Assembly (NCBI GenBank): GCA_037349105.1
Contig: JAYJMM010000039.1
Span: 992,001-1,056,000, forward strand
Origin: Limnomonas spitsbergensis
Taxonomy: Eukaryota > Chlorophyta > Chlorophyceae > Chlamydomonadales
Direction of reading: 5' to 3'
DNA length: 64,000 bases
Under the pieces are notes generated by a model. It saw nothing but the letters and a program-made list of their open reading frames with translations, was not told the DNA's origin and did no database searches. Every line of letters starts with the position of its first letter. Position 1 is the first letter of the stretch. Of this stretch, positions 2,320 to 63,839 are shown piece after piece. The translations under genes and the position numbers were made by a program.

Positions 2320-4476
2320 CTACTCAGACCGTGCCGCGTAGCTGGTGAAGTCCTTCTCCCGGATGTCAATGCCAACCATGGGCTCACCGAGGTTGCTAGA
2401 CACCTCAGCCAGGATGGTGGGGTTGTTGTAGTGCGTGACAGCCTGCGCACAATGGTACAGTCGGATCAGTTGTCAGCACAGGACATTTTGTTTTTTAACC
2501 ATGCAATTAACCTGGTTCTTGGGCAGCAAGGATGGCTCGGAGCTCTTGGTCAATGTTAGGCTTCAAGGCTTACACTTTAACATGCACAATGGTCCTTGCT
2601 CGACCAGCTAGTATGGCACTGTCTCTTCCTTGTCAGTCTTCTAGCTGCGTAGGCAACCTCTCTTACCTGAACAATGGCCCTTGCACGGCCAGCAGGGTCA
2701 CCACTCTTGAAGATTCCAGATCCCACAAACACTCCGTCCATGCCCAGCTGCATCATGAGCGCAGCATCAGCAGGCGTGGCCACACCACCCGCAGCAAAGT
2801 TAACCACTGGCAGGCGGCCTAGATGCTTTGTCTGTCGGACGAGCTCAATGGGTGCCCTGAAGGGGCAGGGAGTGGATGTAGACATTTTTTGAGTGTTGGC
2901 AGGCTTGCAGAGATTACCAGTGACAGGGAAGGTGCAGTACAGCTGGTTCAGTCTAACACCTGAAGCCAGTTAGATTGTCAGGTGTGATGTTCCAGTGATA
3001 GTGTCGTGGGCGAACCAATGTTCTGCGAGTGTGCCATTCTTAAAATTTCATGTGATTAAATTTGGTCTGAGTTGGGGTAACTGAATATGACTTGCATTTT
3101 GGTGCCTGGACACACATGCAGATCAGCTATCGTTGTGACCATTATCAGCAGAGCACTAAATAATCTACACATTCACTTAGTCTGGTTACTTATCTGCAAG
3201 CTCAAGTAATCTGCTAGCTGATCTGCTTGCTCACCTAATCTCCTTGGCATAAACATACAGCTCGTCGTCGTCCATCATCTGGAGAGCCCTGATAGCACCC
3301 ATGACAGCACGCGAGTGGCGCACAGCCTCAACTACATTGCCAGTGCCAGCCTCGCCCTTAGTGCGGATCATGGCAGCGCCCTCAGCCATACGGCGCAGGG
3401 CCTCGCCCAAGTCCCGGCATCCGCAGACAAAGGGGACCTTGAAGTTGTGCTTGTTGATGTGGTGGATCTCATCAGCAGGTGTCAGCACCTGCCAGGGCCG
3501 CACAGAGATAGGTAAAGATATATGTGAATCTAGATTCTGCCGTGTTCTGCCTTATGAATATTGACCATGTGAGCTTGTTGGCAGGGACATGTCAGCTGGT
3601 CCGTCTTGAATCAAACTGTTAAATGGGAAACGCTCATTCATTGGGACAACCACATCCTTGCTGTCTTAGGCTCCGCTTGTACTAGACACCAGCCATGCCT
3701 TTTCTGGGTATTGCATGGCCAGAATATCTGTATGCAGTCAAGCTCACCTCAGACTCATCAATGTAGTCAACTCCCAGGGCCTCAAGGATTTGTGCCTCAA
3801 CAAAGTGCCCAATGCGGGCCTTGGCCATGACAGGGATGGTTACTGCAGCCTGAGAGGGTGAAATGTGTTGTCAGGTGAGGCAAGTTCCTTATAATATGGA
3901 GCGGCAGGTGAGCGACTAGAGCATGTTATGTTTGTGGGAATGCCACACTGCTGAGGAAGGACTCGAGGAACATGCGCTCACCCTAATCGCCTTGATCATA
4001 GTTGGGTCGGACATGCGTGCAACACCACCATCTCTCCGGATATCGGCAGGGACGCGCTCCAGGGCCTGGAAAGTGGAGTTCGAAAGTTTAGAGTGTATTC
4101 AGGAAAACGAACCACAACCGATGAAGTATGAGGTTGAGCGCTGCTCTGTGGGCCAGGTGTGGGTCGGGTCAGGCCCCGTATCGAGCTTGGCGTCTAGTCA
4201 TAATCGAAGCTGCTTGGACAAAGGACTTGCCATGACAGCCACGGCTCCTGCCTCCTCGGCAATGCGTGCCTCCTCCACGTTGGTCACGTCCATGATCACG
4301 CCGCCCTTAAGCATCTGGGCGAGACCGACCTACAGGATGACATATCATGTACTTAGTATTGTGCGGGCACATCTCTTAGGCTGGTGACGGACGTAATTAG
4401 CAGCCAGCAGATCCGTGGATTTTAATGCCACACACACACCAACCTTGACAGCGAAAGTTCCTTGCTGGGCAGACAT
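2320..4476 (-). CDS. PDX1: Pyridoxal 5'-phosphate synthase lyase subunit PDX1 (PdxS/SNZ family), 7 exons
   Basis: Synthase subunit of the DXP-independent vitamin B6 pathway: makes PLP from ribose 5-phosphate, glyceraldehyde 3-phosphate and ammonia supplied by the PDX2 glutaminase. Exons (minus strand): 4444-4476, 4231-4329, 3982-4065, 3748-3849, 3235-3488, 2667-2856, 2320-2442. They splice in phase to 294 aa, the usual PdxS length. Visible family blocks are GGVIMDVTNVEEARIAEEAG, ERVPADIR, AKARIGHFVEAQ, DESEVLTPADE, IRTKGEAGTGN, AAGGVATPADAALMMQLG and VGSGIFKSGDP. The expected active-site residues are present: Asp25, Lys82 and Lys150, matching D24, K81 and K149 of bacterial PdxS. The start is the Met just before the conserved TFAVKVG block; an in-frame Met further upstream (4842) would add an unrelated extension. 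Intron 2 has a GC donor (GCAAGT at 4230). No transit peptide, so probably cytosolic as in plants. Confidence 0.97.
2581..2613 (-). repeat. Degenerate copy of PDX1 exon 6 3' edge
   Basis: About 84 bp downstream of the true exon 6 donor (transcript sense), the intron holds a diverged copy of the exon's last ~30 nt: 'acaatggtccttgctcgacc' here against 'acaatggcccttgcacggcc' at 2671-2690. The donor GT is not preserved. Confidence 0.65.
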
Positions 4477-5150
4477 TTTGAGTTGGATTGATAATATGAA
4501 TTGTGAACGGGGTGAGACCGTGAGTGTGTTAAGATGTGCAGCATAACCAATCAGTGCGTTGTAGGATTGTGGGCCGGAAGTGTGGAGCACGCCTGGCCAG
4601 AAACGTCCACACCTCGCTCGACCTCGCAACTGCTTTTGTGGGAGGTTGGAAAGCCGAGACTGGAATTTCAGTGAAGGATCGGATCCCAGATTCCAGAAGA
4701 TCCAAATACCATTTTGGCACATTACTGCGTATCTCCTGTGGTCGGCATGACGTGGGCTGTTTCTAAAATGTGCTCCGTTCGTCGCATTCTTGTTGCATCT
4801 CGAATATGAAGCATGTGCTGCTGCTGGTTGCGCAGCCTTCAATTGTGCGTCCGTGAACGCCGCCGCAGATCGTTGATCCCTCCCTGACGCACATCCAAGG
4901 GTTCATGGCTGCACCTTCACCCGTGCACCTTCTTACCTTCTCCTGACCTGCCACAGCAATACCGCTGCACTGAAGCCCTTATATTGCTCTTGGATATCAT
5001 CAGAGGGATATCTCGTTTCGCCTCATCTGGCCTTGGCGGTGACAACTGATGACAGCTGTGGGGCGCCCGGAAATGCGCAGCGTTGAGTCATTTAACCTGC
5101 TAACCGGTGCTGCCAACCTTGTTTTGGCCATGGAGAGGCCTGGTCTCAAT
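4477..5150. other. PDX1 5' flank; no other gene seen
   Basis: Sequence upstream of PDX1 on the minus strand. It should contain the PDX1 5'UTR and promoter, but I see no TATA box or other motif I would defend. The minus-strand frame stays open from 4842 into exon 1, but its upstream part has no resemblance to the family. Confidence 0.4.
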
Positions 5151-62472: not shown

Positions 62473-62474
62473 GA

Positions 62475-63839
62475 CTATTCCGCCACATGGTCCTGCGATT
62501 CCCCACCAAACGTCCCCCCATGGATATCGGCATCAAGGTGCCATGCAACGTCTTCCTCCTCATCCTCCTCTTGGGACGCTGCCCTGTCTGTGTCCCCGTG
62601 TCCATCCCCCTCCTCGTCCATGACGCCCTCATCGTGCGCTGCCGGAAGCTCAGCAGCCATCCAGCAAGGCATAGCAGGAGCAGAGGGCCCCGCGCTTTGA
62701 GGCTGCAGCGCCTGATGCAGCTGGCCGCTGAAAAGCATCGGAGGTACAGACGGCTCCGAGACCTGCGGCTGAAGAGCTGCCATGCCGCCCTCTGCCATTG
62801 ACAAAGCGGCCGTCGCACCCACAGCAGCAACCGTCTCAGCCGCCACAGTGTGTTGCCTCTGTCTCTGATCCCTCAAGTCAGAAAAAGCCTGCAGAGCAAT
62901 GGGTCGAAGAAGAGTGACGCGGAGCAATGGGTCGAAGAAGAGTGACGAGGAGTGACTTGGCTTCTGGTGTCCTGCGGTACATCGCCTGGACTTCCCCACC
63001 ACCTCGTCTCCTCCTTGGCTCCTTGCTCAACATGGCCTTTGCCACCCTTATCCTCTACCCCCCCTCCTTCCCCATCCCTGCTCATAATCATCACCGTCAC
63101 AAAGCCTATTTTTCACACTTTATGTTGCCTCGATGGAACGCTAGCAGTCCTCAATCCAGGCAATTGCAATCCAGGCCTTCCTGGCAAATAACTTATTTTC
63201 CACCTTCATTCCTTGCCATGTTGCCAACACAGTGCTGACTGCAGGTTTCACTGACACCCAGGCTATCCTTTCTTTCCTCTTGAGCCTTCTCCCTTCACTT
63301 TCCTACCTGACTTCTTGTTTGCCGACGTGGCCAAGCTTCATGTTAGCATGGCCCAGGGGCGTAACGTCATCAACTGACACCCAGGCAAATCAGCACAGTG
63401 CCCTCCTAGAGCACCTCATGTATCAACTCCGACCCCAGAAGAAGCTGCCCTCCCAAACACCATTGCTTTCCCGCACTGCACGCCTGTACTGCATGCCTGT
63501 ACTGCACACACACATACTTCACACCTGTACTGCATGCCTGTACTACACACATGCACGGACTTCACCCCTCCACTGCACGTTTGCACTGCAAGAACACGTC
63601 CCAGCACCCACCTCTCCCAACGCCTTGAGCACTTCGTCGAAGGTCGGCCGCTCCAAGGGGTTCTCGCTGGTGCACGCTAGGCCCAGCTTCACGTAGGAGG
63701 CCGGCACCGACAACGAGGCGGGGGATCCCAAGGTTCCAGAGTTCGCGTCGTTGTAGCCAAACAGGTTTGGGTGGAACGCCGCGATGCGCCCCTTGCCCTT
63801 GAGGTCCCCCTTCTTCCCAGCACCAGACACTCGCATATA
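62475..63839 (-). CDS. Protein kinase, last two exons (5' part outside the window)
   Basis: Exons (minus strand): 63612-63839 and 62475-62888, joined in phase 0, 213 aa visible. The first exon ends with LGLACTSENPLERPTFDEVL, kinase subdomain XI of Raf-like/tyrosine-kinase-like (TKL) type with the invariant Arg (ERP). About 45 residues before it, rich in Gly, Lys and Ser, look like an insert in the C-lobe; the catalytic loop must lie upstream of the window. The final exon encodes a Gln/Ala-rich then strongly acidic tail (EEDEEEDVAW). The donor is GAG|GTGGGT and the acceptor CTCTGCAG|GC. Such TKL kinases are abundant in chlorophycean genomes; substrate unknown. Confidence 0.82.
62893..62948 (-). 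repeat. Tandem duplication of the kinase last-exon acceptor tract (28 bp x 2)
   Basis: 'gagcaatgggtcgaagaaga' + 'gtgacg' occurs twice in a row, directly outside the exon. On the transcript strand it supplies the pyrimidine-rich 'cactcttcttcgacccattg' before the acceptor. Confidence 0.88.
63266..63378 (+). repeat. Dispersed repeat related to 909-1019
   Basis: Shares 'ctttcctcttg', 'ctgac', 'cgtggccaagcttcatg' and the end 'cgtaacgtcatcaac' with 909-1019. The 3' end resembles that of the ~290-bp retro-repeat, so it may be a subfamily. It lies in the kinase intron. Confidence 0.6.

What the first reader, a model, noticed from the sequence alone, without database searches (positions are those of the whole stretch)
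2581..62948. Recurrent 'splice-edge' tandem duplications: arrays built from exon edge plus donor or acceptor
In each multi-exon gene here, intronic duplications are often copies of the adjoining exon edge with its splice site. Acceptor cases: guanylate kinase exon 4 (x3); FYVE-SYLF exons 2 (x2) and 6 (x3); bestrophin exons 5, 8 (x3) and 10 (64-bp array in register); kinase last exon (x2). Donor cases: PDX1 exon 6; FYVE-SYLF exons 6 and 7 (63-bp array); RING1-like exons 3 (81 bp x3) and 5 (42 bp x14); bestrophin exon 2; unknown-gene exon (~95 bp x9). Exon-internal: bestrophin exons 4 and 5. That is far more than chance placement of minisatellites would give. Tandem duplication spanning AG|GT has been proposed as an intron-gain route; here it seems to run continuously and to enlarge existing introns. 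I infer a mechanism acting at, or tolerated only at, splice borders.
Basis: partly seen in the sequence, partly recalled or inferred. Interest (0 to 1): 0.93.

Follow-up and report, generated by a model that had tools for sequence, protein, structure and literature searches.

The report
Exon edges duplicated into algal introns
In what is likely the genome of an Arctic snow alga, about one intron in six of the conserved genes examined carries a nearby copy of the neighbouring exon edge with its splice site; these copies likely come from ordinary tandem duplications that run across the exon border and would be tolerated because splicing would use the outermost site.

Summary
The copies are real and occur across the genome sample, but the claimed concentration at splice borders is not supported. 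I fixed exon borders by spliced protein alignment in 24 conserved genes chosen by family, not by repeats. A copy of the 20 nt centred on the splice site lies within 1.5 kb at 41 of 450 borders (35 of 225 introns); reversed-sequence control 2 of 450. Twelve alpha/beta-tubulin genes, left out, add 0 of 62. In 40 of 41 cases the copy lies in the flanking intron.

Borders are neither clearly hot nor cold: 0.91 times the nearby intron interior (CI 0.57-1.32), 1.14 times the intron mean (0.74-1.54). Simulated uniform, tolerated duplication gives 0.81-0.88 and 0.61-0.74, so a modest excess by the second measure is not excluded. Local repeats are direct, not inverted (233 against 5). Exon-derived intron stretches come almost only from the adjacent exon (2,392 against 25 bases).

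Of 14 border cases in the finding, 7 are confirmed, 2 weak, 2 not recovered, 3 untested. Closest known kind: amphioxus "mirages". A lead: copied acceptors tend to lose AG, copied donors keep GT.

The parts
10143..10254 (-). Guanylate-kinase-like gene: acceptor of the intron 10978-10150 with a copy 49 nt upstream; TRF array of 52-bp period, 2.2 copies
   Evidence: spliced alignment to yeast GUK1 places the acceptor; copy has 4 of 20 mismatches; the copy reads AT where the real site reads AG
17796..17925 (+). FYVE exon acceptor (last intron base 17914) with a copy at -108
   Evidence: alignment to a FYVE domain; 4 of 20 mismatches
22990..23243 (+). SYLF exon acceptor (last intron base 23232) with copies at -65 and -233
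   Evidence: alignment to human SH3YL1; 3 and 2 of 20 mismatches
23370..23463 (+). SYLF exon donor (first intron base 23380) with a copy at +73
   Evidence: 3 of 20 mismatches
37906..38138 (-). RING1-like gene: 81-bp array across the donor whose first intron base is 38119, copies at +81 and +162
   Evidence: alignment to human RNF2; 0 and 1 of 20 mismatches
35260..35852 (-). RING1-like gene: 42-bp array (about 14 units) across the donor whose first intron base is 35829
   Evidence: 13 further copies of the border at 42-nt steps, 0-1 of 20 mismatches
50962..51212 (+). Bestrophin gene: ~96-bp array across the acceptor whose last intron base is 51185, copies at -96 and -197
   Evidence: bestrophin homology to PDB chains (6iv0 and others); 0 and 2 of 20 mismatches; the -197 copy reads AC in place of AG (read from the sequence)
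2571..2676 (-). PDX1 exon 6 donor (first intron base 2666): weak, degenerate copy at +85
   Evidence: 6 of 20 mismatches; 27 bases of the intron match the adjacent exon
52904..53431 (+). Bestrophin last intron: 64-bp array running up to the last exon; weak likeness to the exon edge
   Evidence: about 6 of 20 mismatches, counted by eye
26085..29450 (+). 63-bp array (about 53 copies) inside the SYLF intron 25964-29733; not a copy of the donor at 25964
   Evidence: no copy of that donor 20-mer at 5 mismatches or fewer
19134..21257 (+). 29-bp array (about 73 copies) inside the SYLF intron 18872-21446; intron-internal

Best explanation
Introns of this genome contain many direct local duplications, and where one spans an exon-intron border the copy of the exon edge and splice site lies on the intron side in 40 of 41 cases; the most likely cause is ordinary tandem duplication falling without regard to exon borders, filtered by splicing, which would use the 5'-most donor and the 3'-most acceptor. 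Shown here: copies occur at 41 of 450 borders, are direct rather than inverted, come almost only from the adjacent exon, start within a few tens of nt of the border, and cover the border about as densely as the neighbouring intron. Inferred: an event covering the outer part of an exon plus the splice site adds DNA to the intron but leaves the outermost exon edge and splice site intact, so the mRNA would not change and the event would be close to neutral. An event lying wholly inside an exon would lengthen the protein and be removed by selection, so the trace fades out inside exons. Repetition would enlarge introns and feed exon-derived DNA into them. Suggested but not established: an acceptor copy upstream of the real one is a harmful decoy and tends to lose its AG, while a donor copy downstream of the real one can stay intact.
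For:: 41 of 450 borders and 35 of 225 introns in 24 genes chosen by family; reversed control 2 of 450; donor copies downstream 20 of 21, acceptor copies upstream 20 of 20; introns under 200 nt 0 of 122 borders; border to near-interior ratio 0.91 (gene-bootstrap CI 0.57-1.32); simulated uniform duplication with full tolerance gives 0.81-0.88; 233 direct against 5 inverted repeats (35 bits or more, within 1.5 kb, 16 first-set gene regions; 97 of the direct ones are in the gamma-tubulin gene); homology length is at least 0.6 of the shift for 18 of 36 first-set hits, as a tandem unit requires; 2,392 of 70,276 intron bases match adjacent exons, 25 match other exons of the gene, 0 the reversed adjacent exons (first set, introns of 200 nt or more); the near ends of exon 24-mers copied into introns lie 1-43 nt from the border (5th-95th percentile, 975 matches); 61 paired introns of paralogues differ in length (median |log2 ratio| 0.55) and 17 of 25 hits are in one paralogue only; copies matching at 15 or more of the other 18 positions keep GT in 15 of 16 and AG in 6 of 14.
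Against: By the same-intron mean the border ratio is 1.14 (CI 0.74-1.54), while simulated uniform placement gives 0.61-0.74, so a modest excess at borders is possible. The simulation uses rates and unit lengths of my choosing and its mean interior coverage (0.14-0.23) is above the observed 0.11. Half of the first-set hits (18 of 36) have homology shorter than 0.6 of the shift, which a plain tandem unit does not give without later decay or insertion. Four edges are hit in both paralogues of a pair, each copy resembling its own paralogue, where about 1.3 would be expected if independent (my arithmetic), which hints at hot spots or homogenisation. The decoy-acceptor signal weakens with a looser threshold (12 of 21, P 0.087). 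The phenomenon is uneven: CCT7 on C39 has 9 hits of 20 borders, the HSP70 set only 5 of 170, alpha/beta-tubulins 0 of 62.
Confidence: 0.72

Rival explanations
1. A duplication mechanism that acts preferentially at splice borders, for example tied to transcription or splicing intermediates, makes exon-edge copies more often than other intron duplications.
For: Ratio to the same-intron mean 1.14 against 0.61-0.74 in simulation; in the first set alone 36 hits against 29.5 from random points, P 0.08; four edges hit in both paralogues; tandem repeats in green-algal introns were reported to be denser near junctions (PMC3887541, passages including part of the abstract).
Against: Ratio to the interior 30-100 nt inside the same ends is 0.91 (CI 0.57-1.32) against 0.81-0.88 simulated; HSP70 replication set 5 hits against 6.6-7.4 expected; ungapped exon overhangs run from 4 to 72 nt with no fixed end point (hits were chosen on 20-mers centred on the border).
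Confidence: 0.15
2. Short dispersed templated insertions from repair of breaks (polymerase-theta type), not tandem duplications, place exon-edge copies in introns.
For: 18 of 36 hits have homology much shorter than the distance between copies.
Against: Inverted copies, expected from such repair (recalled), are nearly absent (5 against 233); some copies form regular arrays (42 bp x 14, 81 bp x 3).
Confidence: 0.06
3. The copies are functional: alternative splice sites kept by selection.
For: Donor copies keep GT and score like real donors (20 of 20 hits inside the intron).
Against: Those hits were chosen partly by the same bases; chosen on the other 18 positions (4 mismatches or fewer) GT is kept in 19 of 24, as expected by chance. 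Acceptor copies often lose AG. Copies mostly differ between paralogues.
Confidence: 0.05
4. Assembly artefact: false copies made by assembling noisy long reads.
For: Assembly from PacBio CLR reads (PMC11228838, passages).
Against: Reads with an L50 of 33 kb at 63x plus Illumina polishing would span these units; copies carry their own substitutions, 77-100% identity over the ungapped stretch.
Confidence: 0.02

Closest known systems
[quoted passage not shown] PMC3087553, PMC3902484, passages seen)
   Same: Tandem repeats spanning donor or acceptor borders, units of about 10-160 bp, many copies with AG/GT, haplotypes that differ in copy number; reported not to interfere with regular splicing.
   Different: There a handful of genes in a chordate; here 35 of 225 introns in 24 conserved genes of a green alga, with border frequency measured against the intron interior. 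Splicing here is inferred from protein homology, not seen in RNA.
Intron gain by tandem duplication of an AGGT-bearing or border-spanning segment (Rogers model; potato RdRp, PMC4974935, passages seen)
   Same: Tandem duplication across an intron-exon border that carries splice signals.
   Different: There a new intron arises; here existing introns are lengthened and no gained intron was shown.
Tandem repeats concentrated near intron-exon junctions in Chlamydomonas and Volvox (PMC3887541, passages seen)
   Same: Green-algal introns rich in tandem repeats towards intron ends.
   Different: The most abundant intron motifs named there are GT/AC dinucleotides; exon-edge copies are not mentioned in the passages I saw.

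Membership tests
Amphioxus-type mirage | Tandem duplication spans an exon-intron border | tested here: met
   41 of 450 borders have a copy, 18 of 36 first-set hits with homology of tandem-unit length; clear arrays at 35829 and 38119
Amphioxus-type mirage | Copies lie in the intron and leave the outer exon edge intact | tested here: met
   40 of 41 in the intron, with the homology-supported border outermost
Amphioxus-type mirage | Regular mRNA splicing is undisturbed | not testable with these tools
   No RNA data held; only protein homology
Amphioxus-type mirage | Copy-number differences between alleles or haplotypes | tested here: inconclusive
   No second haplotype or strain; paralogues differ (17 of 25 hits in one only)
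Intron gain by tandem duplication | A new intron exists at the duplication | not tested
   61 introns share position between paralogues in 6 pairs; the few unpaired ones were not examined for origin
Introner-type mobile introns | Same sequence spread to unrelated genes | not tested
   Copies match the adjacent exon and almost never other exons of the same gene (2,392 against 25 bases); spread to other genes was not searched
Border-specific duplication mechanism | Border copies exceed intron interior | tested here: not met
   Ratios 0.91 (0.57-1.32) and 1.14 (0.74-1.54); a modest excess over simulation is not excluded

The most novel reading that the evidence does not exclude
Border-blind tandem duplication is a genome-wide engine of intron growth in this algal lineage: it steadily turns the last few dozen bases of exons into intron DNA, and the splicing rule decides what survives (5'-most donor wins, so decoy donors stay intact; upstream decoy acceptors must lose their AG). 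The genome would then hold thousands of natural splice-site-choice experiments, and give a mutational answer to why Chlamydomonadales introns are long.
Probability: 0.3. Interest if true: 0.72.

Novelty: new member of a known kind. Interest (0 to 1): 0.52.

Why it matters
For Chlamydomonas relatives the advantage of introns much longer than the minimum is said to be unknown, and the mechanism driving intron length is left open (PMC8226300, passages). These data show that local tandem duplication contributes, that it crosses exon borders freely, and that 3.4% of the sampled DNA in introns of 200 nt or more in the first gene set (2,392 of 70,276 bases) is recognisable exon copy; in the HSP70 set it is 0.6% (122 of 21,158). 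It also offers paired real and decoy splice sites for testing how splicing chooses among near-identical sites.

Tried and rejected
Enrichment at borders: rejected as a strong claim. Templated insertion: rejected mainly on the lack of inverted copies. Purging of all decoy sites: not seen for donors, suggestive for acceptors. In one search GT looked kept in 20 of 20, but that set was chosen on a 20-mer that includes the GT; one search removed the bias. A peculiar AG|GT junction signal: 45 of 131 exons begin with GT; I took this as ordinary, from recall of usual splice consensus. Recent HSP90 paralogues with a 1.16-kb intron difference: an inserted element with inverted ends, not a border duplication. 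The 63-bp SYLF array as a donor copy: not supported. Literature: the listings showed me no report of border-spanning duplications in algae; only titles and the starts of abstracts were seen for most entries, the library lacks most subscription papers, and PMC2791625 was not held. PMC2809761 (passages) was seen and not used.
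Full report
Source. The window is bases 992001-1056000 of contig C39 of a 260,226,709-base, 124-contig genome. That matches, to within about 21 kb, the published Limnomonas spitsbergensis assembly of 260.248 Mb in 124 contigs, made from PacBio CLR reads (L50 33 kb, 63x) and polished with Illumina reads; mean intron length there is 788 bp in the merged annotation (PMC11228838: outline, passages and sections 18 and 20).

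Method. I wrote a spliced protein-to-DNA aligner with GT or GC donors and AG acceptors and a scan for local copies of the 20 nt centred on a border, with 4 mismatches or fewer within 1.5 kb. Genes outside the window were chosen by protein family, not by repeats: CCT1 to CCT8 with two CCT7 genes, four HSP60, gamma-tubulin (aligned over 247 residues), alpha- and beta-tubulins, eight HSP70. PDX1 and guanylate kinase of the window were added. Main counts leave out the 12 alpha/beta-tubulin genes (31 introns), which gave 0 of 62 borders.

Window check. Seven of the 14 border cases named in the finding pass, two are weak, two fail, three were not testable; the two exon-internal cases were not tested. 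The RING1-like cases are the clearest: against human RNF2 the donor at 35829 has 13 more copies at exact 42-nt steps, and the donor at 38119 has copies at 81 and 162 nt. The very large 29-bp and 63-bp arrays lie inside SYLF introns; the four SYLF borders beside them have no copy that belongs to the array.

Genome sample. First set: 36 of 280 borders, 30 of 140 introns, 16 genes. HSP70 replication set: 5 of 170 borders, 5 of 85 introns, 8 genes. Together 41 of 450 borders and 35 of 225 introns; reversed-sequence control 2 of 450. Introns under 200 nt gave 0 of 122. Donor copies lie downstream in 20 of 21 and acceptor copies upstream in 20 of 20, and those 40 lie inside the intron; the one exception (CCT8 intron 6) may be chance. 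The rate is uneven, from 9 of 20 borders in CCT7 on C39 to none in 8 of the 24 genes.

Is the border special? In introns of 200 nt or more, 41 of 328 borders are hit. Random points in the same introns would give 36.1 (P 0.18), and points 30-100 nt inside the same ends 44.8. Along the profile the density is roughly level across the border, rises slowly into the intron and falls inside the exon; exon positions more than 60 nt from a border are at 1.5% (83 of 5,720, first set). A simple comparison misstates what uniform events predict, because an intron point is counted in every copy while a border is counted once, and because exon edges are conserved and so stay recognisable longer. I therefore simulated uniform, fully tolerated duplication with exons and splice signals conserved: it gives border to near-interior ratios of 0.81-0.88 and border to mean ratios of 0.61-0.74, against 0.91 and 1.14 observed. 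The simulated introns have somewhat more interior duplication than the real ones (mean 0.14-0.23 against 0.11), and the rates are my choice. The first measure fits; the second leaves room for a modest excess, with the observed interval 0.74-1.54 just touching the simulated range.

Nature of the copies. Local repeats in the 16 first-set gene regions are direct: 233 against 5 inverted, 97 of the direct ones in the gamma-tubulin gene. The gapped homology is at least 0.6 of the shift in 18 of 36 first-set hits. Ungapped overhang into the exon is 4-72 nt with median 14, and the median shift is 113 nt. Copies of adjacent exons make up 2,392 of 70,276 bases of the 109 introns of 200 nt or more in the first set, in 33 introns; other exons of the same gene give 25 bases and reversed adjacent exons none. 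In the HSP70 set it is 122 of 21,158 bases, in 2 of 55 introns.

Turnover. Six paralogue pairs share 61 intron positions; lengths differ by a median |log2 ratio| of 0.55, and 17 of 25 hits occur in one paralogue only. Four edges are hit in both, and in the sequences each copy looks like its own paralogue. This is more overlap than I would expect by chance (about 1.3, my arithmetic) and is unexplained. Third-position identity of the pairs is 0.58-0.79.

Decoy sites. Choosing copies on the 18 positions outside the dinucleotide: with 3 or fewer mismatches GT is kept in 15 of 16 and AG in 6 of 14 (Fisher P 0.004; AG against expectation P 0.002). With 4 or fewer it is 19 of 24 and 12 of 21 (Fisher P 0.20; AG P 0.087). 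I read this as a lead: an upstream acceptor copy would be met first by the splicing machinery and be harmful, a downstream donor copy would not. That step rests on general knowledge of acceptor choice and is untested here.

Comparison with print. Tandem repeats across intron-exon borders are known in amphioxus as mirages, which are said not to interfere with regular splicing (PMC3087553 and PMC3902484, passages). Border-spanning tandem duplication has also created a new intron in potato (PMC4974935, passages). For Chlamydomonas relatives the mechanism driving intron length is left open (PMC8226300, passages). I therefore file this as mirages in a new lineage and as a widespread feature of its conserved genes.

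Limits. No RNA, no strain comparison and no annotated genome were available. Borders rest on homology.

Noticed in passing
L081 (G000:C32:482370-483930) against L080: Two HSP90 paralogues about 99% alike in this stretch differ by a 1.16-kb insertion in one intron; its ends are inverted repeats rich in CCGTACCGTA and its flanks look like a target-site duplication, so a hAT-like DNA transposon is likely (type recalled, not searched). Introns here also grow by element insertion.
   Followed up: partly
G000 contigs C36/C119, C39/C99, C84/C114, C21/C124, C123/C4: Conserved genes come in diverged pairs on different contigs (C36/C119 for both HSP60 and HSP70) with all or most intron positions shared and third-position identity 0.58-0.79, suggesting an old large-scale duplication.
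   Followed up: partly
CCT7 and HSP60 pairs (regions C39:6054800, C99:3125296, C36:4467334, C119:2693106, C84:959200, C114:963000 of G000): Four splice edges carry a copy in both paralogues of a pair, each copy resembling its own paralogue: recurrent hits or homogenisation.
   Followed up: partly
50425-50525: Interstitial telomere-like array (CCTAAAC repeats, about 14 units, 72% matches) inside a bestrophin intron.
   Followed up: no
4230-4066 (minus strand): PDX1 intron with a GC donor (ATG|GCAAGT).
   Followed up: no
CCT1, CCT3, CCT4, CCT5, CCT8 genes of G000: The first three introns are short (60-151 nt) and later ones mostly longer; border copies at 4 mismatches occur only in introns of 200 nt or more.
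   Followed up: no
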